NCBI RefSeq assembly: GCF_013002705.1
Contig: NZ_JABEND010000001.1
Location: forward strand, 1-64,000
Direction of reading: 5' to 3'
DNA length: 64,000 bases
From: Nakamurella aerolata
GTDB taxonomy: Bacteria > Actinomycetota > Actinomycetes > Mycobacteriales > Nakamurellaceae
Of this stretch, positions 10,449-21,883 are shown piece by piece (within the stretch, counting starts at the first letter, position 1; the number at the start of each line of letters is the position of its first letter). The translations under genes and the position numbers were made by a program. The notes under the pieces were generated by a model. That model ran no database searches, was not told the DNA's origin, and was given only the letters and a program-made list of their open reading frames with translations.

Positions 10449-11687
10449 TCAGCCGTCGAGCTCGGCCTGTCGCCGGCTCAGGTAGGCACGCTCGGCCGGG
10501 TTGCCGGCCAGCTCGATCGCCCGGTCGTATGCCGCGCGCGCCTCGTCGGTGCGCGACAGCCGGCGAAGCAGATCGGCGCGGGTCGCGTGAAACGCGTGGT
10601 AACCATCGAGTTCGGTTGCCAGAGAGTCGATCTCGGCCAGAGCGGACTCCTCACCAGCAACCTCGGCAACCGCGACTGCGCGGTTGAGTCGCACGATGGG
10701 CGAAGGGTCGAGGGCGAGCAGCCGGTCGTAGAGCGCGACGACCTGCGGCCAGTCGGTCGCGGCAGCGGTGTCCCCATCGGTGTGCACCGCGTTGACCGCC
10801 GCGAGCAGCTGGTAGCGCCCAGGGGGTTCGGCTCCGGCGGCGACGGCCGCGATCCGCTCACGCACCAGCGCGTGCCCCTCCTTGATCATCGCCCGGTCCC
10901 AGACCCCGCGGTCCTGCTCGCCGAGAGTGACGAGTGCACCGTCCGGTGACACCCGCGCGGCGCGACGGGCATCGGTCAGCACCATCAGCGCCAGCAACCC
11001 GCAGACCTCGCCGTTGTCCGGCAGCAGCGAGCGAAGCAGTCGCGTCAGCCGGATCGCCTCGTCGCTGAGGTCGGTCCGCACCGCGTCGTCGCCGGCGCTC
11101 GCCAGGTAGCCCTCGTTGAAGACGAGGAAGAGGACCGCGAGCACCCCGGCGAGGCGGGAGCGCACGTCGTCGGCGCTCGGCACCCGGTAGGGCACGTGCG
11201 CCGCCTTGATCTTCTTCTTCGCTCGCGTAATCCGCCCCGCCATAGTGGTTTCCGGCACGAGGAAGGCGTGTGCGATCTCAGCGACGGTGAGGCCCCCGAG
11301 CAGTCGCAGGGTGAGCGCAACGCGCGCGTCCATGGCGAGTGCCGGGTGGCAGCAGGTGAAGACGAGGCGAAGCCGGTCGTCCTGCACGGGGCCGGTCGGC
11401 TCCGGGACCGAATCGTCATACAGCATCTGAGCGGCCTGATGTTTGGTGTCGCGGTGGGATTCGCGGCGCAGCCGGTCAATCGCCTTGCGCGTCGCAGTGG
11501 TGGTCAGCCAGCCGCCGGGGTTCGGCGGTATGCCGTCAGCCGGCCACCGCTCGACCGCTGTCGCGAACGCCTCGGCGGCGGCCTCCTCGGCGACGTCCAG
11601 GTCCCCGAAGCGGCGCGCGAGGCCGGCGACCACCCGCGACCACTCGTCGTGGTGAGCGCGGGCGATCGCCTCGTCGACCGTCGTCAC
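10449..11687 (-). CDS. ECF42-type sigma factor with C-terminal TPR-like extension
   Basis: 412 residues from GTG 11687, whose GTGA overlaps the stop of the preceding YCII gene. Sigma region 2 spans roughly residues 8-85 (FGDLDVAEEAAAEAFATAV, then GWLTTTATRKAIDRLRRE) and region 4 about 110-165 (LTLRLLGGLTVAEIAHAFLV, then TMAGRITRAKKKI). The remaining 240 residues form the long extension typical of ECF42, with FNEGYLASAG and a tetratricopeptide-like end. Family knowledge: ECF42 factors have no anti-sigma partner, need the extension for activity, and sit beside DGPF/YCII-domain proteins, exactly as here. The signal sensed is not known. Third gene of the operon. Confidence 0.88.
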   Translation of the reverse strand: MTTVDEAIARAHHDEWSRVVAGLARRFGDLDVAEEAAAEAFATAVERWPADGIPPNPGGWLTTTATRKAIDRLRRESHRDTKHQAAQMLYDDSVPEPTGPVQDDRLRLVFTCCHPALAMDARVALTLRLLGGLTVAEIAHAFLVPETTMAGRITRAKKKIKAAHVPYRVPSADDVRSRLAGVLAVLFLVFNEGYLASAGDDAVRTDLSDEAIRLTRLLRSLLPDNGEVCGLLALMVLTDARRAARVSPDGALVTLGEQDRGVWDRAMIKEGHALVRERIAAVAAGAEPPGRYQLLAAVNAVHTDGDTAAATDWPQVVALYDRLLALDPSPIVRLNRAVAVAEVAGEESALAEIDSLATELDGYHAFHATRADLLRRLSRTDEARAAYDRAIELAGNPAERAYLSRRQAELDG

Positions 11688-12070
11688 GAATCCAGCAGGC
11701 CCTGAAAGTCTTCTGCGGTCTGGAACGGTCGCACCTCGACCTTGCCGCGGCACGCCTTCGACCCGTCGGCGGCGAGCGCGAGCGCCTCGTCGAGATCAGC
11801 GGCGTCGATCACCCAGAACCCGCCGACGTGCTCCTTGGACTCGAGATAGGGGCCGTCGGTGAGCACCGGCTGATCGCCCCGCCCGTCGACGACGGTGGCG
11901 GTCGTCGCTTCGGCGAGACCGCCGGCGAAGACGAACTTGCCTGACTTCTCGAGCTTTTCGTTGAATGCGCCGGTGTCGGCGAACGCCTGCAGCATCTCCT
12001 CCTTGGAGCCGTAGTTGCCGAACTCGGTGCGCTCGGCCGGCCCGAAGACCGACATCAGGTAACGAGGCAT
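11684..12070 (-). CDS. YCII/DGPF-domain protein, second of two
   Basis: 128 residues from ATG 12070, one base after the stop of the first YCII gene. Opens with MPRYLMSVFGPAERTEFGNY and carries the DGPY form of the DGPF motif (VLTDGPYLESKEHVGGFWVI), the conserved core of this ferredoxin-like fold. Such proteins are the regular partners and targets of ECF42 sigma factors; some are thought to bind or transform small phenolic or chlorinated compounds, but no enzyme activity can be assigned here. A longer in-frame extension upstream overlaps the first YCII gene antiphase and is rejected. Confidence 0.85.
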   Translation of the reverse strand: MPRYLMSVFGPAERTEFGNYGSKEEMLQAFADTGAFNEKLEKSGKFVFAGGLAEATTATVVDGRGDQPVLTDGPYLESKEHVGGFWVIDAADLDEALALAADGSKACRGKVEVRPFQTAEDFQGLLDS

Positions 12071-12071
12071 G

Positions 12072-12449
12072 TCACTCACCGTCCTTGAGTTGCAGGATTT
12101 CTTCACGGCTGGGGAAGCGGTGCACTTCCTGCGGCCAGTCGAGGGCGACCGCGATCCGGCCGGCCCATTCGCGTGCTGCCGCGTCGTCGTCGACCTTGAT
12201 GACGCAGAAGCCGCCGAGGTGCTCTTTGGTCTCCACGAACGGGCCGTCGCTGAAGACCGGCTTGCCGTCCCGTGCCGACACGTTGAACAGTGCGGTCTCC
12301 GCACCGATGCCGCCGTCGCTGAAGACGAAGACACCGGCCTTCTCCATCTCGTCGACGACCTGCAGCGCCGCCTTGCTCTTGGCGCGCAGCTCGTCCAGGG
12401 TGTGTTCGCCCACCCACTCGTCGTTGAATGCGATCAGGTACTGCGGCAT
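12072..12449 (-). CDS. YCII/DGPF-domain protein, first of two
   Basis: 125 residues from ATG 12449, with GAGGAGAC about 5 bases upstream. MPQYLIAFNDEW is the opening strand and VFSDGPFVETKEHLGGFCVI is the DGPF core. First gene of a three-gene operon (YCII, YCII, sigma factor) with ATGA-type or 1-base spacing throughout. The operon is probably autoregulated by the sigma factor it encodes, which is the usual pattern for ECF42. In the 226 bases upstream, the minus strand carries TGTCGT about 70 bases before the start, near the TGTCGA reported for ECF42 -35 elements, but no convincing -10 partner. Confidence 0.87.
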   Translation of the reverse strand: MPQYLIAFNDEWVGEHTLDELRAKSKAALQVVDEMEKAGVFVFSDGGIGAETALFNVSARDGKPVFSDGPFVETKEHLGGFCVIKVDDDAAAREWAGRIAVALDWPQEVHRFPSREEILQLKDGE

Positions 12450-12674: not shown

Positions 12675-12773
12675 ATGTCGTATGCCGTTGACTTCCAGAC
12701 CGTGCCGACCGTTGGACTGGAGTCCTCGCCGGTCGCCGAGGCGCTTGCCGGCCTGCGCGCCAACGAGGCTCTA
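12675..12773 (+). pseudogene. N-terminal remnant of an unrecognised small gene
   Basis: ATG 12675 has a strong AAGGAGAG ribosome site 6-7 bases upstream and opens MSYAVDFQTVPTVGLESSPV, then AEALAGLRANEA, which reads like a genuine conserved N-terminus. After about 33 codons the frame enters sequence that is the antisense of the Nudix gene and loses all protein character. The open frame formally runs to 12989. I take it as a gene whose 3' end was lost when the Nudix segment was joined here. Confidence 0.4.
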
Positions 12774-13190
12774 GGCGGAGCTCGGCCCACTGGCGCTCCC
12801 GAGTGTGAGGTCGATGGCACTGATGATGTCGGGCAGGGACTCCGGGTGTGCGAGCTGCAGGTGGGTGAGCTCGTCCAGCCGGCACCAGCGCAGGTCGTCG
12901 TGCTCGCCGGGCGCCAGGTTGGCTGCCTCACCGTCCCATCGGGTGACCACGAAGCCGTCTGTCGTCAGGTGCGGCGCGTGCACCGTTAGCGGCACCGGAC
13001 GAGGATTGCGAACGTGAATGCCCAACTCCTCCAGGCATTCCCGGACGACTGCATCGCGGGAGGACTCGCAGGGTTCGACGTGTCCGCCGGGGAGCGCCCA
13101 CCGGTCGGGGTAGGCCTCGTGCGCCGGGTGGCGGTGCGTCATGAGCACACGATCATTGCGAACGAGCACCACGGTCGCGATCAGGATCAT
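12771..13190 (-). CDS. Nudix hydrolase
   Basis: 139 residues from ATG 13190. The Nudix box is complete: GGHVEPCESSRDAVV followed by RECLEELGI, matching GX5EX7REUXEEXGU and so holding the Mg2+ ligands. Opens MILIATVVLVRNDRVLMTHR, the usual first strand. Proteins of this size and type clean oxidised nucleotides or other nucleoside diphosphate derivatives; the substrate cannot be chosen from sequence. A longer in-frame ORF to 13304 lacks family residues. It lies 8 bases downstream of a small ORF (13199-13369) and may be co-transcribed with it. Confidence 0.85.
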   Translation of the reverse strand: MILIATVVLVRNDRVLMTHRHPAHEAYPDRWALPGGHVEPCESSRDAVVRECLEELGIHVRNPRPVPLTVHAPHLTTDGFVVTRWDGEAANLAPGEHDDLRWCRLDELTHLQLAHPESLPDIISAIDLTLGSASGPSSA

Positions 13191-13198
13191 GGCCGGGA

Positions 13199-13369
13199 TC
13201 AGGCGGCCGTGTGGGCGTGGCCGGGCATGCGTCCTGGGGTGAGGTCCCAAGTGACGCCGTCGGCGCGGACGTGGACCCTGCTCAGTCGCATCGACACCGG
13301 CCACTGGTCGGATGTCTGTTCGTCCCCTCTGGTACTCGTAGTTGGGCCGGCTTCCAGCAGCATTGTCAT
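13199..13369 (-). CDS. Small unrecognised protein upstream of the Nudix gene
   Basis: 56 residues from ATG 13369 (or ATG 13363). It contains SMRLSRVHVRADGVTWDLTP, a short beta-rich stretch, and ends GRMPGHAHTAA. Its stop is 8 bases before the Nudix start, consistent with translation in tandem. It is divergent from the small plus-strand gene at 13424. No family recognised. The case for coding rests on spacing and the protein-like C-terminal half. Confidence 0.35.
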   Translation of the reverse strand: MTMLLEAGPTTSTRGDEQTSDQWPVSMRLSRVHVRADGVTWDLTPGRMPGHAHTAA

Positions 13370-13711: not shown

Positions 13712-14617
13712 CTACTTGCTCATCCCCGCGGTGAGCCCCGCGACGATCTGCTTGGTGGCGATGGCGAAGAGTGCGATCAGCGGCAGGGTGGTGATCACCA
13801 GGCCGGCGAAGATGGTGGAGTAGTCGTTGGCGTGCTCGCCGAAGAAGGTGGAAAGGCCAACGGGCAGGGTGTATTTGCTGTCGCTGCGCAGCAGCACCAG
13901 CGGGAACAGGAAGTCGTTCCAGATCGGCACGAAGCGGAACACCGCCACCGTCGCCAGTGCCGGACGCACCAGCGGGATCATGATCGTGGTGAACACCCGC
14001 CACGGCCCGGCGCCGTCGATAGCGGCGGCTTCTTCCAGTTCGCCCGGCACCTGCCGGAAGAAGGCGCCGAGCACGAACACCGAGAACGGAACCCCGCCGG
14101 CACCGTACAGCAGGATCAGCCCGATCCTTGAATCGATCAGCCCGACCCCATCGAAAAGATAGAAGATCGGCAGCACCGCAAGGTGAATGGGCAGCATCAG
14201 CCCGGAAAGAAACAGCGCCTCCAGCACCCGCATGATGCGGGAGTTGCTGCGCGCCAACGCATACGCCGCCGCGGTGGACACCGCCGTCGACAGTGCCACC
14301 GCACCGATGGTGACCAGCAGCGAGTTCAGGAAGTACGCGCCGAACTGCCCCTGCGTCCACGCGCGCCGATAGGCGGCAAAGGTGGGCGAGGTGGGCAGCC
14401 CCAGCGGATCGGTGGCCAGCTGCATGTTGGTGCGCAGCGACGACATCACCATGATCAGCAGCGGCAGCAGCGCCACGATCGCGTAGCCCCACAAGATGAT
14501 CGAGGCCGCCACCCGCCCCGGACCGCGGCGTCGGGTCGTTCCGCCGCCGGCGGCCTTCGGCTGCCGCAGCGGATCGCTGGGCGCCGGCGCGGCCGGCACT
14601 GTGGTGGTGGCCGTCAT
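13712..14617 (-). CDS. Carbohydrate ABC transporter permease, MalG type
   Basis: 301 residues with six predicted membrane helices after a 35-residue cytosolic N-tail rich in Ala/Pro/Arg. The EAA loop that docks the ATPase reads ELEEAAAIDGAGPWRVFTTI, typical of MalG/NgcG-type CUT1 permeases; WNDFLFPLVLL follows as usual. It overlaps the other permease by ATGA (14614-14617), so the two are made together as a heterodimer. No ATPase gene is in the cluster; actinobacterial CUT1 importers commonly share one MsiK-type ATPase encoded elsewhere. Last gene of the MurNAc-type salvage cluster, so the likely cargo is a cell-wall amino sugar. Confidence 0.87.
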   Translation of the reverse strand: MTATTTVPAAPAPSDPLRQPKAAGGGTTRRRGPGRVAASIILWGYAIVALLPLLIMVMSSLRTNMQLATDPLGLPTSPTFAAYRRAWTQGQFGAYFLNSLLVTIGAVALSTAVSTAAAYALARSNSRIMRVLEALFLSGLMLPIHLAVLPIFYLFDGVGLIDSRIGLILLYGAGGVPFSVFVLGAFFRQVPGELEEAAAIDGAGPWRVFTTIMIPLVRPALATVAVFRFVPIWNDFLFPLVLLRSDSKYTLPVGLSTFFGEHANDYSTIFAGLVITTLPLIALFAIATKQIVAGLTAGMSK

Positions 14618-15519
14618 CCCAGCAACCGCCGTTCTTGCCGGCGCAGCACCCAGGTGGCCGTCAACGCCCCACCGAAGATCACCACGAACAACAGTGTCGC
14701 CAGCGCCGACGAGGTGCCGATGGCATCGGTGGCGCCGGAGTCGAAAGCGGTGCGGTAGAACAACAACGACAAGAAGTCGGTGGCCCCGCCCGGATTGCCG
14801 GTACTACCGCCGACGGCGTACGGCAGCGCGAACGCCTCCATCGCGAAGATGAAGGTCAACACGCTGACGGTGCCGATCGCCGGCAGCAGCAGCGGCAGCT
14901 TGATCCGCCGGAAGATCTGCGAAGGACGGGCGCCGTCCACCCGCGCCGCCTCGCTGAACTCCTCGGGGATGCCGCCCAGCGCCGCCCCGTACAGCAGTAC
15001 CGGGAACCCGATCCACTGCCAGACGCTGATCAGGATCACCACCGGCAGCGCCGTCGTCGGATCACCGAGCCACGGCAGCGCCCACGACTCGAGGCCGACT
15101 TTGCGCAGCAGGGTGTTCACCGGCCCGAACGCCGGCGACAGCAACAGGCTCCACAGATAGCCGACCACCAACGGGCTCACCAGGTACGGCACCGCGAACA
15201 GGGTCTGCAGTGCCCGCCGGGTACTCGCCCTCGAGTGCAGCAACGAGGCGATGCCGAGGCCGATGCTGTTCTGCAGCACGATGGTGGCAAGGAAGAACAC
15301 GATGTTGTGCAGTAGCGCCCGCGGTAGATCGGTGGTGAACGGCGGCTTGGTGAACAGTGCCTCGAACTGCTTGAACCCGACGAACGCGCCGCGGCTGGTG
15401 CCCTGCCAGTCGAAGAAGGCGTAGCTGAACGCGGTCACCATCGGGTAAAGGATGAACACCCCGAACAGCACCAGCGCCGGCAGCACGAAAAGGGCCGCCG
15501 TGCCCAACCGCATTCTCAT
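14614..15519 (-). CDS. Carbohydrate ABC transporter permease, MalF type
   Basis: 301 residues with six predicted membrane helices beginning at LFVLPALVLFGVFILYPMVT. The EAA loop is EFSEAARVDGARPSQIFRRI. Partner of the MalG-type permease, with which it overlaps by four bases, and 41 bases downstream of the binding-protein gene. Together they form the membrane channel of a CUT1-family sugar importer. The start ATG 15519 (MRMRLGTAALF) could alternatively be two codons later. Confidence 0.87.
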   Translation of the reverse strand: MRMRLGTAALFVLPALVLFGVFILYPMVTAFSYAFFDWQGTSRGAFVGFKQFEALFTKPPFTTDLPRALLHNIVFFLATIVLQNSIGLGIASLLHSRASTRRALQTLFAVPYLVSPLVVGYLWSLLLSPAFGPVNTLLRKVGLESWALPWLGDPTTALPVVILISVWQWIGFPVLLYGAALGGIPEEFSEAARVDGARPSQIFRRIKLPLLLPAIGTVSVLTFIFAMEAFALPYAVGGSTGNPGGATDFLSLLFYRTAFDSGATDAIGTSSALATLLFVVIFGGALTATWVLRRQERRLLG

Positions 15520-15560
15520 CGCCGCGCTCGCCCCTCAGCTCCGTTCCGCCGGTCAACGCC

Positions 15561-16955
15561 CTACTGCTGGGGTTTGAACCAGGCCGCAAGGCCCTTGTCC
15601 ATGTCGGTGCCGACCTGAGCGGGAGATTGCTTGCCCAGCAACACGTTCACCATGCCCTTGGTGAACAGCTCGCCCCCGGACGGGGTGCCGTAACGGAAAT
15701 CGGTGAGCAGGAAGTACGGCGACGGGTTCTTGGCGTAGAAGTCGCTCATCTGCTTCATCACCGGGTCCGAGAAGGTCACCCCAGGCACCGCGGAGACCTG
15801 CTTGATCTCGTCCACCACCAGCTGCCCGAACTCCTTGGTGGACATCCACTTCACCAGCTTCTTGGCCGCCGCCACGTTCTTGCTCTTGGCGTTCACCCCG
15901 AAGTTGCCGTCGGCCCAGCCGGCGGTGGTCGGGGTGGCCCCGGCGGGGGAGCCGTCCACCACCGGCATCTGGAACACCCCAAGCTTCAGGTCGGGGTTGG
16001 CGGCCTTGAGCATCGCCAGATCGTAAGAACCGCCGGGGAAGATCGCGGCCTTGCCGGTCGCGAACAGGGTGACGGCGTCGGTCAGTGGCACGCCGGTGAC
16101 GCCGTCGGGCATGTACTGCTTCAGGTCGGCGACGGTCTGGATGGACGCGGTCCAGTTCGGGTCGGTGAAGTTCTTCTTGCCGCTGGCCGCCGCTGCCGCG
16201 AACTCCTTGCCGCCGAAGCGACTTGCCGCCACCGCCTCGTGCACGATCGGCAGGGTCCAGTCGTCCTTGCCGCCGATGGCCAGCGGGGTGACCCCGGCCT
16301 GCTTGAGCTTCGCGCAGGCGTCCTGGAACTCCTTCCAGGTGGTCGGCGGCTTGATGCCGTTGGCGGAGAACACATCTTGGTTGTAGTAGAGCTGCACGCT
16401 CTGCTGGGCGAACGGCACCGCGTACAGCTTGCCATCGGCCTTGCCCTTGGCGCTGGCCACAATGGTCGGATCCCAACCCTTGAGATCGAGGGTGTCGTCC
16501 AGCGGCACCAGCGACTTGGCGGCGAGGGTGGCCTGCAGCTGTCCGTAGGAGCGCACCTGCGGCACGTCGGGCCCGTCCGAGCCGGATAGCCCGGTGGCCA
16601 GGATCTGGTTGTACTCGGTGGCCTTGAACGCCTTGAAGTTCACCGTGACGCCCGGGTTCTTGCTCTGATAAGCATCGAAGATCTTGCGGTACGCGGCGGT
16701 GTCCTCCACCCGCCAGGACCACACCGTCAGGGTGACCGGCCCGTCGGCCGATGCCGCGCCGCCGCCCGAACCGCCGGCCGAGCCGCCTGCGCCCGCCGCG
16801 GTGCCGGTGGACGCCGAGTCCGAGTTGGACGGCGCGCAGCCCGCCGCCAGCAAGGCCCCCGTCAGCGTTGCCGCGGCGGCCATCAGCAGGGTGCGACGGG
16901 GCCGCGCGCGGCGGATGGGACCGTGGTGCACGGTACTGCTGAACGACGGTGTCAT
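15561..16955 (-). CDS. ABC transporter sugar-binding lipoprotein
   Basis: 464 residues from ATG 16955. The N-terminus has two arginine pairs and then a hydrophobic stretch ending in the lipobox LAAGC (lipidated Cys40), followed by a Ser/Gly-rich linker. From about residue 70 it is an ordinary CUT1 solute-binding protein: LTVWSWRVEDTAAYRKIFDA, VPFAQQSVQLYYNQDVFSAN, GKAAIFPGGSYDLA. Start overlaps the murQ stop (ATGA 16952-16955), tying its expression to MurQ. By context it should capture MurNAc or a MurNAc-containing muropeptide outside the membrane; this is inference, since fold similarity alone does not give the ligand. Confidence 0.85.
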   Translation of the reverse strand: MTPSFSSTVHHGPIRRARPRRTLLMAAAATLTGALLAAGCAPSNSDSASTGTAAGAGGSAGGSGGGAASADGPVTLTVWSWRVEDTAAYRKIFDAYQSKNPGVTVNFKAFKATEYNQILATGLSGSDGPDVPQVRSYGQLQATLAAKSLVPLDDTLDLKGWDPTIVASAKGKADGKLYAVPFAQQSVQLYYNQDVFSANGIKPPTTWKEFQDACAKLKQAGVTPLAIGGKDDWTLPIVHEAVAASRFGGKEFAAAAASGKKNFTDPNWTASIQTVADLKQYMPDGVTGVPLTDAVTLFATGKAAIFPGGSYDLAMLKAANPDLKLGVFQMPVVDGSPAGATPTTAGWADGNFGVNAKSKNVAAAKKLVKWMSTKEFGQLVVDEIKQVSAVPGVTFSDPVMKQMSDFYAKNPSPYFLLTDFRYGTPSGGELFTKGMVNVLLGKQSPAQVGTDMDKGLAAWFKPQQ

Positions 16956-17950
16956 GGCAGCTCTCCTTGGGACCGGGGTGCGGACGGCGGAACGGTAGCG
17001 GATGGTGCAGACGTAGAACCTGACCCACCGGCAGGTGACGGGTGAACGGCGGTGGGCAGCACCGCCAGGGCGCGCCGGACCACCCCGCCGGTGGCGGCGA
17101 GAGCGGCCCTGGCGTCGGCGGCGGAGACGCTGCCGATGACGCTGACCAGTGCCGTCTTCAACTCGCCGTCGGCGGCCTCGATGTGCGCCCGAGCGGTCTG
17201 CTCGTCGGCGCCGGTGGCCTCTCGCAGGATGCGCACCGTACGCCCGCGCAGCTTGGCGTTGGTGGCCCGCATGTCCACCATCAGGTTCGAGTAGGTGCGG
17301 CCGAGGCCGATCATCACCGCGGTGGAAAACCCGTTCAGCACCAGCTTTTGCGCCGTCCCAGCTTTGAGTCTGGTGGAGCCGGTGATCGCCTCCGGCCCGG
17401 TCGGAACGGCCAGCAGCACGTCGACCCCGGTGATGTCGGGATGCGGGTGCGAGGTGACCAGCGCGGTGACCGCGCCGTTGTCGGCGGCCGCCCGCAGCGC
17501 CCCGGCCACATAGGGGGTGCGCCCTGACGCGGTCAGGCCGATGACGACGTCGCCGGGGCCGGTGTCGGCGGCGTCGGCGGCGCCGGAACGTTCGTCGTCC
17601 TCGACGTTCTCGGCGGCCCGGATCAGCGCGGCCGCACCACCGGCGTGGTGGGCGACGAACCAGTCGGCGGGGGCGTTGAACGTCGGCAGCAGCTCCGCGG
17701 CATCCAGCACGGCCAACCGGCCCGAGGTACCGGCGCCGAAGTAGTGCACCCGGCCGCCGGCGGAAATGCGTTGCACGGCAATGTCGACCAGCGGTGCGAG
17801 CGCCGGAAGCACGGTACTGACCGCAGCGGCGACCTGGCGGTCCTGTTGATTGAGCAGTTGCAACACGGCGAGCGAGTCTTTGGTGTCGATCTCGGCGGTC
17901 GCCGGGTTGCGGTCTTCGGTCGGTGACTGCACCGCGACCTCTGGAAGCAT
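16952..17950 (-). CDS. murQ: N-acetylmuramic acid 6-phosphate etherase
   Basis: 332 residues. MurQ cleaves the lactyl ether of MurNAc-6-phosphate to GlcNAc-6-phosphate and D-lactate, bringing peptidoglycan sugar into central metabolism. Seen here: TEDRNPATAEID (family signature near residue 11), the SIS-domain phosphate loop YFGAGTSGRLAVLDAAELLP, the second SIS motif GLTASGRTPYV, and GSTRLKAGTAQKLVLN. The C-terminal 30 residues are a Ser/Pro-rich tail not usual for MurQ. The start ATG 17950 sits 6 bases after a -10 hexamer, so the mRNA is probably leaderless. An ABC importer would deliver unphosphorylated MurNAc, so a MurNAc kinase is needed; none is in the window. Confidence 0.93.
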   Translation of the reverse strand: MLPEVAVQSPTEDRNPATAEIDTKDSLAVLQLLNQQDRQVAAAVSTVLPALAPLVDIAVQRISAGGRVHYFGAGTSGRLAVLDAAELLPTFNAPADWFVAHHAGGAAALIRAAENVEDDERSGAADAADTGPGDVVIGLTASGRTPYVAGALRAAADNGAVTALVTSHPHPDITGVDVLLAVPTGPEAITGSTRLKAGTAQKLVLNGFSTAVMIGLGRTYSNLMVDMRATNAKLRGRTVRILREATGADEQTARAHIEAADGELKTALVSVIGSVSAADARAALAATGGVVRRALAVLPTAVHPSPAGGSGSTSAPSATVPPSAPRSQGELP

Positions 17951-17953
17951 CCG

Positions 17954-17985
17954 CTGAGGTTAGATTTTTCCTCAGGCCGAGTCAA
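17954..17985 (-). promoter_or_regulatory. murQ promoter with embedded palindromic operator
   Basis: On the minus strand TTGACT (17985-17980) and TAACCT (17962-17957) are separated by exactly 17 bases, and the ATG of murQ begins 6 bases after the -10, predicting a leaderless transcript. The palindrome CTGAGG-N10-CCTCAG (17954-17975) covers the -10 and the adjacent spacer, where a bound repressor would block polymerase. The neighbouring RpiR/MurR-type regulator is the obvious candidate. Confidence 0.65.
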
Positions 17986-18047
17986 CGATGTGAAGAACTG
18001 ACGACCGGGTGTCGCAGCGCACCCGCGCCCGGTCGGGGCGGGTTTGG

Positions 18048-18989
18048 TCAGTCGTCGGTGTGGTGCCCGCGGACGGCCCGCCGGGTGGCGGCCACCGCCT
18101 TGCGGGCCCGCGGCAGATGCTGCTGGGCGGTGGCCAGATACAGGCAATCCACCACCAGCAGCGCGGCCATCCGGCTGGCGGTGGCGCCGGAGCGTTCGCT
18201 CGGTTCCCGGGCCGCCGTCAACAACGAAATGTCGGCAGCGGCGGCCAGCGGCGCCATCGGATAGTTGCTGATCGCAATGCTTTTGGCGCCGTGCGCGGCG
18301 GCGGCGCGCAGCGCCTCCACCGACTCGGTGGTGGTGCCGGAGTACGAGATGCCCACCGCGACATCCGACCGGCCCAGCAGCGCAGCGCTGGTCAGCGCCA
18401 GGTGCGGGTCGTTGAAGCTGAACGCCACAAAGCCCAGCCGGTACAGCTTCTGCTGCAGATCGGCGGCCACCAGGCCGGACGCGCCCATGCCGTAGATGTC
18501 GATGCGACCGGCCTTGGCCAGCGCGCCGGCCGCATTGGCCAGCGCCCTGCGGTCGATGCTGTTGGCGGTGTCGGTGATCGCTGCGGCATCGGCCGAGGCG
18601 ACCTTGGCGAGGATGTCGTCGAGGCTGTCGCTGGCGTTGATGTCGCCGCGCGGCGGCGTCGCGCCGGCCGCAGCAGTGGCCGCAGCCGACGCGGCTGCCA
18701 GGGCCAGCCGCAACTGCGGATATCCGCTCAGCCCAAGGCGTTTCGCGAACCGCAGCACGGTGGTCTCCGACGTGGCGGCGCGGTCGGCGAGCTCGGAGAT
18801 GGTCAGCGCGGACACCGCCGCTGGGTTGTCCAGCACCAGCGCGGCCACCCGTTCCTCCGCGGGCGTCAGCGTCGGCCGCAACCCGCGCAGATGCACCAAC
18901 AGCGGACGTCCCTGCTCGGCGGTGGGCGGTGGGGTAGCAGCGGACTGCCCGCGGCGCTGGGTGCTGGTTCGGGAACGACGCTCGGCCAT
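18048..18989 (-). CDS. RpiR-family transcriptional regulator, MurR-like
   Basis: 313 residues from ATG 18989. The N-terminal HTH (about residues 30-105) reads LTPAEERVAALVLDNPAAVS, then LTISELADRAATSETTVLRF and AKRLGLSGYPQLRLAL, the RpiR signature. The C-terminal SIS domain has YGMGASGLVAADLQQKLYRL and the phosphosugar loop GISYSGTTTESVEAL. In Escherichia coli and Bacillus, MurR represses the MurNAc genes and is released by MurNAc-6-phosphate, the MurQ substrate. Here it lies directly upstream of murQ on the same strand, with a palindrome in the murQ promoter. A -10-like TACGGT (19002-18997) ends 7 bases before its start, so it may have its own leaderless promoter. Confidence 0.85.
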   Translation of the reverse strand: MAERRSRTSTQRRGQSAATPPPTAEQGRPLLVHLRGLRPTLTPAEERVAALVLDNPAAVSALTISELADRAATSETTVLRFAKRLGLSGYPQLRLALAAASAAATAAAGATPPRGDINASDSLDDILAKVASADAAAITDTANSIDRRALANAAGALAKAGRIDIYGMGASGLVAADLQQKLYRLGFVAFSFNDPHLALTSAALLGRSDVAVGISYSGTTTESVEALRAAAAHGAKSIAISNYPMAPLAAAADISLLTAAREPSERSGATASRMAALLVVDCLYLATAQQHLPRARKAVAATRRAVRGHHTDD

Positions 18990-19069
18990 GATCGCTACCG
19001 TACGTCCGCCGGGGCGGCAAACCACGGCAATACCGATGGTTCCGGCCCGGCCCGTGTCCAGCGCTGGGG

Positions 19070-20473
19070 TCAGGCCCGACCGGTGCCGGCAGGCGGGGCA
19101 ACCGCCGGGCGCGCCGATCCGCCAGGCGGGTCGGTGCCGGCGTCGATCGCGGTGGCCAACGCGCCGGCGAAAGCGGCCCGGATCGGTTGCAGGCTGCGCC
19201 CGTTGCGGCTGGGATGCACCCGGTTGGTGAGCAGGATCGCGAAGCTGCCGCGGACGAAATCGATGACGATGCTGGTGCCGGTGAAGCCGGTGTGTCCGGC
19301 CGTCGCCGGCCCCGTCGCAGCGCCCATGTAGGCAGGCTGATCGAGCTCGAGGCCGAGCCCGTGGGCGTGGCCGGGGAACGCGCCGTTGCGGTCGGTCACC
19401 AACAGCCGCACCGATTCCTCCCGCAGGATGCGGTGCCCGGCGTAGACGCCGCCGTTGAGCAGGGTCTGCGCCAACACGCTGAGATCGCCGGCGGTGGAGA
19501 ACACGCCGGCGTGCCCGGCGACACCGTCGAGCGCCCAAGCGTTCTCGTCGTGCACGCTGCCCCAGACCATGCCGCGGTCGGGCACCTGCTGCCATTCGGT
19601 CGCCGCGATCCGCGGGCGGCGGCGGCCGTCCGGCGCATAGTTGGTGTCGCGCATGCGCAACGGCCCGGTGATCCGGCTGCGCACCACGGCGTCCAGCCGG
19701 TGGCCGGTGATCTTCTCGATCACCTGCTGCAGGGTGATCATGTTCAGGTCCGAGTACCGGTAGTCGGTGCCCGGCAGGAACGTGAGCGGAGTCTGCAGGG
19801 CACCCAGCATCCGGCTCTGCGGGTCGGGGTACTTCGAGTAGAGCGGCACCCAGGCCGGGAACCCGGAGGTGTGGGTGAGCAGCATGCTCACCGTGACACG
19901 CTCCTTGCCCGGCCCGGTGAAGGCCGGCAGATAGCGCTGCACCGGCGCGTCCAGGTCGAGCCGGCCCTGCTCCACCAGTTGCACGGCCGCGATCGAGGTG
20001 AACAGCTTGGACAGCGACGCCAGGTCGTAGATGGTGTCGGTGCGGGCCGGGATCCTGGCCGGCGCCGGCAGCAGCACGGCCTCGGTCGCTGCCGGGTCCC
20101 GCGGCGCCTGGTACAACCGGGCAAAACCGCTGGCCTCTTCGGCGACGATGCGGCCCCGGTAGCCCAGCACCGCGACGGCCGACGGATAGGCCCGCGGCCG
20201 ATCCGGCGAGTCCCGCTCGTTGGCCACGATCGCGGTCATCGCGTCGGCGATCGCCCCCGGGTTCAAGCCCACCGATTGCGGTGCCCCCGGGCGAAGCTGG
20301 TCGACGTTCATGAAGGTCCATTCCTGCGTTGCTGCTTGGTCGAGAGCGGCCGCCGATGCGGGCGGTCGGGAGAAGAAAGTGGCCGCGGCGACAGACAGGC
20401 ACCCGGCCCCACCGAGGTGCAGCAGAGCCCGGCGGGACAGTCCTGGTGCGCGCAGTTCGCCGTCGCCGCTCAC
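19070..20473 (-). CDS. Exported serine hydrolase of the beta-lactamase fold (AmiE/YbbE-like by context)
   Basis: 467 residues from GTG 20473, overlapping the namZ stop (GTGA). The start region has a twin-arginine type signal, LSRRALLHLGG followed by a hydrophobic stretch and an Ala-rich cleavage region near residue 43. The catalytic motifs of class C-type enzymes are present: SxxK as SLSK (Ser153, Lys156), YSDLN in place of YxN, and HTG in AGHTGFTGTS in place of KTG. In B. subtilis the beta-lactamase-fold protein of the mur operon (AmiE/YbbE) removes the peptide from MurNAc-peptides. The same position here suggests the same step. A D-aminopeptidase or esterase is the alternative. Longer in-frame ORF to 20857 overlaps namZ and is rejected. 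Confidence 0.78.
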   Translation of the reverse strand: MSGDGELRAPGLSRRALLHLGGAGCLSVAAATFFSRPPASAAALDQAATQEWTFMNVDQLRPGAPQSVGLNPGAIADAMTAIVANERDSPDRPRAYPSAVAVLGYRGRIVAEEASGFARLYQAPRDPAATEAVLLPAPARIPARTDTIYDLASLSKLFTSIAAVQLVEQGRLDLDAPVQRYLPAFTGPGKERVTVSMLLTHTSGFPAWVPLYSKYPDPQSRMLGALQTPLTFLPGTDYRYSDLNMITLQQVIEKITGHRLDAVVRSRITGPLRMRDTNYAPDGRRRPRIAATEWQQVPDRGMVWGSVHDENAWALDGVAGHAGVFSTAGDLSVLAQTLLNGGVYAGHRILREESVRLLVTDRNGAFPGHAHGLGLELDQPAYMGAATGPATAGHTGFTGTSIVIDFVRGSFAILLTNRVHPSRNGRSLQPIRAAFAGALATAIDAGTDPPGGSARPAVAPPAGTGRA

Positions 20474-21816
20474 GGCCGGCCTCCCGGGTAGAGCAGGTAC
20501 CGCTGTCGGCGGACTTTGAAGGCCGACAGTTCGCGTTGGTAGGCGCTCACCACCGCGGTGGCGCTGGCGCCGGCGGTGATCTGTTCGCGCAGCCGGGTCG
20601 ACCCGGTGAGCTTGTCGATCCAGTAAGGACGCTGCGGGTCCCAGCTGTCCTTGCGCCAGCCGAATTCCGGGTAGAGCTGCCGCGCCGCCACCAGCAAGTG
20701 GATCGCCAGCGGGATGGCTTGGACGGCCTGGATGTCGTCGAGGTGCACCTGAACGCCGCCGCACACCTCGCCGGTGAACTTGCCGAACGTCGGGGTGAAG
20801 TAGCACTCGCGAATCCGGACGCCGGGGAGACGTTGTGCGGCAACGGCTTCCGCCCATCGATAGTCGACGAACGGTGCGCCGAGAATCTCGAAAGGCCGGG
20901 TGGTGCCGCGACCCTCGGTGAGCACAACACCCTCGAACATCCCGGTGCCGGGATACAGCAGTGCGGTGTCCGGCGTCGGCATGTTCGGTGACGGCGGCAC
21001 CCAGGCCAAACCGGTGTCGGCGTAACGCATGTCGGGCCGCCAGCCCGTCATCGGCACGACGGTGAGCTTGCGCAGCCGGCCGCCGGCGACGTCCGGCAGC
21101 AGCTCGCCGTCGTAGTAGCGGGCCAGTTCGCCGACCGTCATGCCGTGCTGCTGCACGATCAGCCCGGCGCCGACGCCGGAGGTGAACGCCGGTGTCATCA
21201 TCGGCCCGTCGGCCTTGCCGCCCAACGGGTTCGGCCGGTCGAGCACCACGAACTCGGCGTTCACCGCGATGGCTGCCTGCATGGCGGTGAACATGGTCCA
21301 GATGTAGGTGTAGAAGCGGGCGCCGGCGTCCTGGATGTCGAACAGCACGGTGTCGACGCCGGCGGTGCGGAACAGCTCCGTCATCTTCGACACCCCGGCG
21401 CCGTAGGCGTCGTAGACGGTCAGCCCGGTGCGCGGGTCCTTCGTCGTGCCCTCAGAGCCGCCGGCCTGCGCGGTGCCGCGGAAACCGTGCTCCGGCCCGA
21501 AGATCCCGACGATGTTCAGTGCGCCGGTCCGGTGCATCACGTCGACGATGCTGCGCAGCTGGGCGTCCACCCCCGTCGGGTTGGTGATGATGCCGAGCTT
21601 GCGGCCGCGCAGTGCCGAGAACTCTTGCGCGGCAAGGACCTCGAACCCTGTTGAGACCGAAGCGGCCGGCATCGCCGGGGCTGCGGCGGTGGCTGCCGCC
21701 ATGGCGCCGGGCGCTGCCGGCGCGGCGGCCGCGTTGCTGACGCCGATAGGGGCCGCCGCCGCGGCCACCCCCAATCCGGTGGCGGTCAACAACCTTCTGC
21801 GGTTGAGCGCGCTCAT
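20470..21816 (-). CDS. NamZ-type exo-beta-N-acetylmuramidase (DUF1343 family)
   Basis: 448 residues from ATG 21816, with GGGAG about 6 bases upstream. Twin-arginine type signal NRRRLLTATGLG followed by a long Ala-rich stretch predicts export. Family landmarks: GRKLGIITNPTGVD, GIFGPEHGFRG (with the Glu-His pair of the active site), DIQDAGARFYTYIWTM, VLDRPNPLGG, the LLYPGTGMFEGVVLTEGRGT block and GAPFVDYRW. DUF1343/NamZ enzymes remove terminal MurNAc residues from glycan chains. First gene of the cluster, so it would supply MurNAc to the ABC importer encoded further down. No NagZ gene, which normally acts in alternation, is next to it. Confidence 0.88.
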   Translation of the reverse strand: MSALNRRRLLTATGLGVAAAAAPIGVSNAAAAPAAPGAMAAATAAAPAMPAASVSTGFEVLAAQEFSALRGRKLGIITNPTGVDAQLRSIVDVMHRTGALNIVGIFGPEHGFRGTAQAGGSEGTTKDPRTGLTVYDAYGAGVSKMTELFRTAGVDTVLFDIQDAGARFYTYIWTMFTAMQAAIAVNAEFVVLDRPNPLGGKADGPMMTPAFTSGVGAGLIVQQHGMTVGELARYYDGELLPDVAGGRLRKLTVVPMTGWRPDMRYADTGLAWVPPSPNMPTPDTALLYPGTGMFEGVVLTEGRGTTRPFEILGAPFVDYRWAEAVAAQRLPGVRIRECYFTPTFGKFTGEVCGGVQVHLDDIQAVQAIPLAIHLLVAARQLYPEFGWRKDSWDPQRPYWIDKLTGSTRLREQITAGASATAVVSAYQRELSAFKVRRQRYLLYPGGRP

Positions 21817-21866: not shown

Positions 21867-21883
21867 GTGAATGGTTCACATTC
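21867..21883 (-). promoter_or_regulatory. Palindrome upstream of namZ, possible operator
   Basis: GTGAA-TGG-TTCAC (21867-21879) nests with GAATG-GTTCA-CATTC (21869-21883), 51 bases before the namZ start. Its sequence is unlike the palindrome at murQ, so a common regulator is not evident. No clear promoter hexamers were found beside it. Confidence 0.3.

What the first reader, a model, noticed from the sequence alone, without database searches (positions are those of the whole stretch)
13712..21816. MurNAc salvage cluster with an ABC importer instead of the PTS transporter
Seen: in one direction, NamZ-type muramidase, beta-lactamase-fold hydrolase, RpiR/MurR-type regulator, MurQ, sugar-binding lipoprotein and two CUT1 permeases, with four-base overlaps at four of the six junctions. 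Known: B. subtilis has murQ-murR-murP-amiE-nagZ-namZ, where MurP is a PTS protein that phosphorylates MurNAc during entry. Inference: this actinobacterium imports free MurNAc (or a MurNAc-peptide) through an ABC system, so MurQ needs a separate kinase and NagZ is encoded elsewhere or not used. Both hydrolases have RR-type signals and would work outside the membrane.
Basis: partly seen in the sequence, partly recalled or inferred. Interest (0 to 1): 0.78.

Follow-up and report, generated by a model that had tools for sequence, protein, structure and literature searches.

The report
Cell-wall sugar salvage via ABC importer
[quoted passage not shown] coli and Bacillus; it is a candidate for a transporter that studies of actinobacteria still call unknown.

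Summary
In detail: seven genes on the minus strand, NamZ, an AmiE/YfeW-type serine hydrolase, MurR, MurQ, a lipoprotein SBP and two CUT1 permeases. One detail is wrong: four-base overlaps occur at three of six junctions, not four. The window's genome (95% complete) shows no PTS EIIC domain and no AnmK. The SBP occurs in 25 of 394 class genomes, and MurQ is in all 25, against 120 of the other 369. Three other genomes carry GH3-NamZ-AmiE-MurR-MurQ-SBP-permease-permease-BadF kinase in one collinear run. The window's genome has a single BadF kinase over the family cut-off, on another contig. Its ten best-scoring homologues all lie beside murQ or are fused to it, so the 'separate kinase' is very probably found. 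A secreted-type NagZ-like GH3 and a candidate MsiK-like ATPase are also elsewhere in the genome. A palindrome upstream of namZ and a leaderless-type murQ promoter recur in a few relatives. Best reading: extracellular release of free MurNAc, ABC import, phosphorylation by a MurK-type kinase, MurQ cleavage. Substrate binding and transport are inferred, not shown. New variant of a known kind.

The parts
20470..21816 (-). namZ: exo-beta-N-acetylmuramidase (GH171-type; GH number recalled), RR-type signal (NRRRLL)
   Evidence: PF07075 E 1.1e-72 and PF20732 E 6.4e-50; PDB relatives 4k05, 4jja
19070..20473 (-). AmiE/YfeW-type serine hydrolase (PF00144), RR-type signal (SRRALL); overlaps namZ by 4 bases
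   Evidence: Pfam; best NCBIfam model is PBP4B, 173 bits, below cut-off 385; 33% identity over 393 columns to E. coli YfeW, which lies in the E. coli murQ-murP-yfeW run
18048..18989 (-). murR: RpiR-type regulator (HTH_6 + SIS)
   Evidence: Pfam; 30% identity to E. coli MurR over 251 columns
16952..17950 (-). murQ: MurNAc-6-phosphate etherase
   Evidence: NCBIfam NF003915 354.6 bits, over cut-off; 42% identity to E. coli MurQ over 288 columns
15561..16955 (-). CUT1 solute-binding lipoprotein, proposed MurNAc-binding; overlaps murQ by 4 bases; signature W81-R82-x-E84-D85 and GPD-x4-R135-x-Y
   Evidence: Pfam; present in 25 of 394 class genomes, all 25 with MurQ; signature
14614..15519 (-). CUT1 permease (F-type)
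   Evidence: PF00528; a homologue beside the SBP in 24 of 24 relatives
13712..14617 (-). CUT1 permease (G-type); overlaps the first permease by 4 bases
   Evidence: PF00528; a homologue beside the SBP in 23 of 24 relatives, the other stretch (L154) ending with its contig
21867..21879 (.). palindrome GTGAATGGTTCAC, proposed MurR operator upstream of namZ
   Evidence: only GTRAA-N3-TTYAC in the window, shuffle mean 0.04; same pattern at cluster promoters in L131, L132 (twice) and L212 and nowhere else in 856,766 bases of 46 stretches, 43 of which have none
17957..17985 (-). proposed murQ promoter TTGACT-N17-TAACCT, six bases before the murQ ATG (leaderless mRNA)
   Evidence: identical geometry at murQ in the genomes of L131 and L134, and with looser boxes in L132

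Best explanation
The cluster is a MurNAc scavenging and recycling system of an actinobacterium in which no PTS EIIC was found. Outside the membrane, NamZ cuts terminal MurNAc units from peptidoglycan glycan fragments. The AmiE-type hydrolase frees MurNAc from its peptide, and a secreted-type NagZ-like GH3 encoded elsewhere removes GlcNAc. The lipoprotein SBP captures free MurNAc and hands it to the two CUT1 permeases, powered by a shared MsiK-type ATPase encoded elsewhere. In the cytoplasm the detached BadF-type kinase makes MurNAc-6-phosphate, MurQ splits this into GlcNAc-6-phosphate and D-lactate, and NagA continues. MurR controls namZ and the murQ unit. Shown here: gene identities, conserved linkage and co-occurrence, no detectable PTS EIIC or AnmK, and a kinase whose best-scoring relatives are murQ-linked or fused. 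Inferred: the SBP substrate, the ATPase assignment, kinase specificity, hydrolase activities, operator and promoter function, and secretion.
For: No PF02378 PTS EIIC match in the own genome, while the control rings in 7 of 14 named genomes. AnmK not found; control rings in 5 of 14. SBP homologue at E<=1e-50 in 25 of 394 class genomes; MurQ (E<=1e-30) in 25 of 25 of these versus 120 of 369 others, Fisher p 3.4e-12, not corrected for relatedness. SBP within 241 bp of murQ in 8 of 24 other genomes. Complete collinear GH3-NamZ-AmiE-MurR-MurQ-SBP-F-G-BadF in L131, L132 and L134. A BadF-type kinase hit in 16 of 24 SBP neighbourhoods. The ten best-scoring relatives of the own BadF kinase adjoin murQ in 10 of 10; in 6 of the 10 one ORF spans both by coordinates, and Pfam confirms both domains in the two scanned, L197 and L204. 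Best PDB match of the own kinase is a MurNAc/GlcNAc kinase, 8zo3. UgpC/MsiK-like ATPase on C16 with no sugar-type permease beside it. NagA present. Own GH3 has an export-type N-terminus and is 54% identical to the GH3 that precedes namZ in L037.
Against: No binding, transport or growth data. 13 of the 24 relatives' SBPs have no listed MurQ within 10 kb (partial MurQ list), though MurQ is elsewhere in each of those genomes. The own BadF kinase has only a sub-cut-off GlcNAc-kinase model as NCBIfam match, and a ROK protein adjoins nagA, so GlcNAc kinase roles are possible. Kinase and GH3 are not linked to the cluster here, and no palindrome lies in the 19 kb fetched around either. Six named relatives have namZ-amiE-murR-murQ with no CUT1 match within the flanks (L011-L014, L021, L037), so the importer is not obligatory for the pathway.
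Confidence: 0.8

Rival explanations
1. The ABC system imports a larger fragment (MurNAc-peptide or GlcNAc-MurNAc), and amidase or glucosaminidase steps finish the job inside.
For: CUT1 importers often take disaccharides and short oligosaccharides (general knowledge); the nearest described ABC route for wall fragments, YejBEF-YepA in Agrobacterium, imports muropeptides (passages of PMC9790009). Neighbourhoods were searched only with the cluster's own proteins, so cytoplasmic amidases or glucosaminidases were not looked for.
Against: NamZ, the AmiE-type hydrolase and the GH3 have export-type N-termini by eye, which would leave free MurNAc outside. The linked enzyme after import is MurQ with a monosaccharide-kinase-type protein, in places in one frame with it.
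Confidence: 0.13
2. The ABC importer carries GlcNAc, chitobiose or another common sugar and only happens to be co-transcribed with murQ.
For: Closest NCBIfam model of the SBP is the GlcNAc/chitobiose protein NgcE (97.9 bits).
Against: Far below the NgcE cut-off of 399.65. MurQ co-occurs in 25 of 25 genomes. A clade signature with two conserved basic positions, absent in 10 of 10 other CUT1 SBPs found in the fetched stretches, would suit an acidic sugar.
Confidence: 0.06
3. The kinase for this pathway is not the BadF protein but one of the eleven ROK proteins, for example the one beside nagA.
For: ROK at C17:187714-188589 directly precedes nagA at C17:188771.
Against: BadF-type kinases sit in 16 of 24 SBP neighbourhoods (ROK was not searched there), and the own BadF's ten best-scoring relatives are murQ-linked.
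Confidence: 0.15

Closest known systems
B. subtilis murQ-murR-murP-amiE-nagZ-namZ cluster (figure legend and passages of PMC5061867, where namZ is still ybbC of unknown function; its identity as NamZ is recalled)
   Same: NamZ, a serine hydrolase taken to be AmiE-like, MurR, MurQ; NagZ-type GH3 in three relatives' clusters and elsewhere in this genome
   Different: MurP (PTS) replaced by a CUT1 ABC importer plus a separate BadF kinase; no PTS EIIC found in the genome
E. coli murR / murQ-murP-yfeW
   Same: MurR, MurQ and the YfeW-type serine hydrolase
   Different: PTS import; no namZ among the annotated neighbours
S. coelicolor SCO4305-SCO4308 (passages of PMC5061867)
   Same: MurR-like and MurQ in an actinobacterium without a MurP orthologue
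   Different: No importer assigned there; the other two genes are of unknown function
Tannerella forsythia MurT-MurK-MurQ (PMC10465942 passages; MurT from its reference list and from the abstract start of PMC5790795)
   Same: MurNAc imported and then phosphorylated by a kinase before MurQ
   Different: MurT is not described as an ABC system in the text seen; Gram-negative auxotroph
YejBEF-YepA of Agrobacterium (passages of PMC9790009)
   Same: ABC importer for peptidoglycan fragments
   Different: Peptide-type ABC importer for anhydromuropeptides; feeds AnmK-AmgK-MurU, not MurQ
NgcEFG / DasABC GlcNAc and chitobiose importers (recalled, plus the NCBIfam NgcE model)
   Same: CUT1 architecture, shared ATPase (recalled)
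   Different: SBP falls far below the NgcE cut-off and carries its own signature

Membership tests
MurQ-type MurNAc catabolic cluster | MurNAc-6-phosphate etherase MurQ | tested here: met
   NF003915 354.6 bits, over cut-off 168; equivalog TIGR00274 294.4 against cut-off 302, just under; 42% to E. coli MurQ
MurQ-type MurNAc catabolic cluster | MurR/RpiR regulator adjacent | tested here: met
MurQ-type MurNAc catabolic cluster | PTS importer MurP | tested here: not met
   no PF02378 match in the genome; control rings in 7 of 14
NamZ (GH171) | NamZ N- and C-terminal domains | tested here: met
NamZ (GH171) | exo-muramidase activity | not testable with these tools
   needs an enzyme assay
AmiE/YfeW-type serine hydrolase | PF00144 fold, murQ linkage, export signal | tested here: met
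   linkage in 8 of 24 SBP neighbourhoods; RR motif by eye
AmiE/YfeW-type serine hydrolase | MurNAc-L-Ala amidase activity | not testable with these tools
   relation to YfeW does not prove amidase action; no B. subtilis AmiE sequence was compared
CUT1 sugar ABC importer | lipoprotein SBP plus two permeases | tested here: met
   lipobox LAAGC by eye
CUT1 sugar ABC importer | MalK/UgpC/MsiK-type ATPase | tested here: inconclusive
   none in the cluster; candidate C16:221427-222602 passes NF008653; assignment inferred
NgcE (GlcNAc/chitobiose SBP) | NCBIfam TIGR03851 cut-off 399.65 bits | tested here: not met
   97.9 bits
MurK-type MurNAc kinase (BadF fold) | BadF/BcrA fold with linkage to murQ in relatives | tested here: met
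MurK-type MurNAc kinase (BadF fold) | Thr (T94 in T. forsythia MurK) rather than Asn before the catalytic Asp, to make room for the lactyl ether | tested here: inconclusive
   Ser in own protein; among the 32 homologues aligned (own copy included) Asn in one (L039), but Glu in two (L143, L147) and Asp in one (L146); and the PDB MurNAc/GlcNAc kinase 8zo3 itself has Asn there
MurK-type MurNAc kinase (BadF fold) | phosphorylates MurNAc | not testable with these tools
   needs an enzyme assay

The most novel reading that the evidence does not exclude
A dedicated, previously undescribed class of ABC importer for free N-acetylmuramic acid exists in actinobacteria. It is defined by an SBP clade with the signature WRxED and GPDx4(R/K)xY, whose conserved basic residues would hold the lactyl carboxylate. 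It works with a shared ATPase and a BadF-type MurNAc kinase (in one frame with MurQ in some relatives) and so forms a complete non-PTS route for MurNAc uptake under MurR control.
Probability: 0.65. Interest if true: 0.72.

Novelty: new variant of a known kind. Interest (0 to 1): 0.6.

Why it matters
MurQ-based recycling was shown in S. coelicolor, but a MurP orthologue is missing there (PMC5061867 passages). A 2026 preprint on mycobacteria still speaks of MurNAc uptake by 'an unknown transporter' (PMC13041923 passages). This cluster supplies a concrete importer candidate, its probable kinase and a candidate regulatory site, so the open question becomes directly testable in at least part of the phylum. 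It does not solve it for every lineage: the SBP was found in only 25 of 394 class genomes, while MurQ is in 145.

Tried and rejected
PTS import elsewhere in the genome: rejected, no EIIC match. AnmK route: rejected, no match. Classification as NgcE: rejected on score. SBP relatives in viral contigs: one pattern match, no relative. Palindrome as a genome-wide regulon: not supported. There are four sites in the own genome; the other three are not near genes I could recognise by eye as wall salvage. The window's shuffle mean (0.04 per 64 kb) would give about 2.7 in the genome, so four is near chance, although the reversed-pattern control gave none. T94-type residue as proof of MurNAc specificity: rejected, because 8zo3 has Asn and three cluster kinases have Glu or Asp.
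Full report
What is there. The seven genes are present as described, all on the minus strand from 21816 to 13712. Profile searches identify NamZ (both domains), a PF00144 serine hydrolase, an RpiR/SIS regulator, MurQ, a CUT1 solute-binding lipoprotein and two CUT1 permeases. The four-base overlaps number three of six, not four. Some 400 bases downstream on the same strand is a NUDIX ORF (12771-13304). Upstream and divergent is a Sua5/YrdC ORF.

The serine hydrolase is not an unknown extra. It aligns over 393 columns at 33% identity with E. coli YfeW, encoded right after murP in the murQ-murP-yfeW run. B. subtilis has amiE in its murQ cluster (PMC5061867 passages). No B. subtilis AmiE sequence was compared here, so its likeness to AmiE and its amidase activity are inferred.

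The importer. An SBP search of 394 genomes of the class gave hits at E<=1e-50 in 25, the window's own included. MurQ was found at E<=1e-30 in 145 of 394 in the same kind of draw, and in 25 of the 25 SBP genomes against 120 of 369 others (Fisher p 3.4e-12; relatedness not corrected; the SBP genomes fall in 16 of 138 genera). The BadF query at E<=1e-10 hit 21 of the 25 and 112 of 369 others. In 8 of 24 other genomes the SBP lies within 241 bases of murQ. Neighbourhoods of all 24 were fetched (8.5 to 19 kb each) and searched by tblastn with the cluster proteins, two GH3 and two BadF queries. MurQ was hit in 10 of 24, a MurR-like protein in 17, a BadF-type kinase in 16, an AmiE-like protein in 8, NamZ in 4, a GH3 in 3. 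L136 alone had none of these. RpiR, BadF and PF00144 are large families, so single hits of these are weaker evidence. L131, L132 and L134 carry GH3-NamZ-AmiE-MurR-MurQ-SBP-permease-permease-BadF kinase collinearly on one strand.

The kinase. The own genome (4.35 Mb, 22 contigs, 95% complete) has one BadF-family protein over the Pfam cut-off, at C16:410568-411587, with no recognisable pathway gene beside it. This protein as query hit 133 of 394 genomes. Of its homologues, the ten best-scoring places outside the own genome were fetched, and in 10 of 10 the kinase adjoins murQ (L196-L205). In 6 of the 10 (L196, L197, L198, L201, L203, L204) one ORF spans both regions by coordinates. Two of these were scanned, L197 (616 aa) and L204 (597 aa), and both show the BadF and the MurQ-type SIS domains. 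Among all 149 listed kinase places, 16 have a MurQ from my partial list within 500 bases, four of them in the top ten; the other six of the top ten come. So linkage is much denser among the closest relatives than further down, and the kinases inside the SBP clusters rank lower (55, 68, 111 and so on). The best PDB match by sequence is 8zo3, named MurNAc/GlcNAc kinase (9.6e-17), ahead of a hexokinase and GlcNAc kinases. The NCBIfam match is a GlcNAc-kinase model far below its cut-off. A dual GlcNAc/MurNAc kinase is quite possible.

Other missing parts. No PTS EIIC match, no AnmK match, NagA present at C17 beside a ROK protein. Five GH3 matches. The one at C1:590917-592803 has an export-type N-terminus by eye, is 54% identical to the GH3 that precedes namZ in L037, and has beta-N-acetylhexosaminidase as its top NCBIfam model, below cut-off. 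Two ATPases pass the UgpC subfamily cut-off. The one at C1:281497 sits in its own permease-permease-SBP operon. The one at C16:221427-222602 has no sugar-type permease beside it; a LacI-like regulator and a metal-type ABC set flank it (by eye). It resembles the shared MsiK ATPase of streptomycetes (recalled), and its role here is inferred.

Regulation. The window has one GTRAA-N3-TTYAC palindrome, at 21867-21879, 50 bases upstream of the namZ start (shuffle mean 0.04). I formed the pattern after reading intergenic regions of the window, L131 and L132, so those are not independent. A scan of 46 further stretches (856,766 bases) found four more sites in three stretches: L131 before its GH3, L132 before its GH3 and between murR and murQ, and L212 18 bases before the ATG of its GH3. 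L212 was not used to form the pattern. The other 43 stretches have no site. The own genome has four sites; the other three are not at genes I could recognise as salvage genes, and none is in the 19 kb around the own kinase or GH3. murQ has a promoter-like TTGACT-N17-TAACCT exactly six bases before its ATG. The pattern TTGACK-N17-TAACCT-N6-RTG, formed from the same reading, occurs once in the window (0 of 100 shuffles) and, among the 223 loci then held, only in copies of three murQ starts: the window's and those of the genomes of L131 and L134. L132 has the same spacing with looser boxes. L037, which has no CUT1 genes nearby, shows no such box. A leaderless murQ message is the inference.

Binding-site hints. 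In an alignment of 25 SBPs (window plus 24), W81 is invariant, R82, E84 and D85 are kept in 24 of 25 (L140 differs), position 135 is Arg in 23 and Lys in 2, and D349-G350 are invariant. None of 10 other CUT1 SBPs found in the fetched stretches has these. From recalled maltose-binding protein anatomy the first two loops line the ligand cleft. Two basic residues would suit the carboxylate of MurNAc. This is a prediction; no structure was modelled.

Literature. S. coelicolor has MurQ and recycles MurNAc, but a MurP orthologue is missing (PMC5061867, passages). A 2026 preprint posits an unknown MurNAc transporter in mycobacteria (PMC13041923, outline and passages). [quoted passage not shown] In the listings shown by ten full-text searches (listings were capped at 20 of 161 and 30 of 110) I saw no title or abstract start describing an ABC importer for free MurNAc. 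Six exact phrases for such a transporter hit no paper. The library lacks most subscription journals, and the T. forsythia NamZ paper is not held, so this is not proof of absence.

Limits. The NamZ scan kept the best 80 of 559 relatives. Six named actinobacteria among them have namZ-amiE-murR-murQ on one strand without CUT1 matches nearby (L011-L014, L021, L037). Actinoplanes loci L015, L016 and L020 pair namZ with a different CUT1 SBP (23-24% identity) lacking the signature. The importer is therefore one solution among several.

Noticed in passing
L197:8259-10109, L204:8696-10489 (also L196, L198, L201, L203 by ORF coordinates): A BadF-type kinase and MurQ lie in one open frame; L204 also carries a PPE-like protein by eye, so some of these genomes look mycobacterium-like (recalled hallmark).
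   Followed up: partly
L015, L016, L020 (Actinoplanes): AmiE-like gene and a different, signature-less CUT1 SBP-permease set run opposite to namZ; L020 has a BadF-like kinase (by eye) between namZ and murR-murQ. Possibly a second, independent CUT1 recruitment.
   Followed up: partly
L142-L147: SBP of this clade with both permeases and a BadF-type kinase but no MurQ nearby, in genomes of 4.7-10.7 Mb that have MurQ elsewhere; the rest of the neighbourhood was not annotated.
   Followed up: no
L148, L149, L153, L154: The importer clade is kept in very small genomes (1.3-1.8 Mb), with a MurR-like gene in all four and MurQ in two of the fetched stretches, which suggests MurNAc is a valued nutrient there.
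   Followed up: no
window 10449-11753 and 12072-12449 (-): ECF-type sigma factor with DUF6596 and, next to it, a small protein that looks like a YCII/DGPF-domain protein (by eye, not searched).
   Followed up: no
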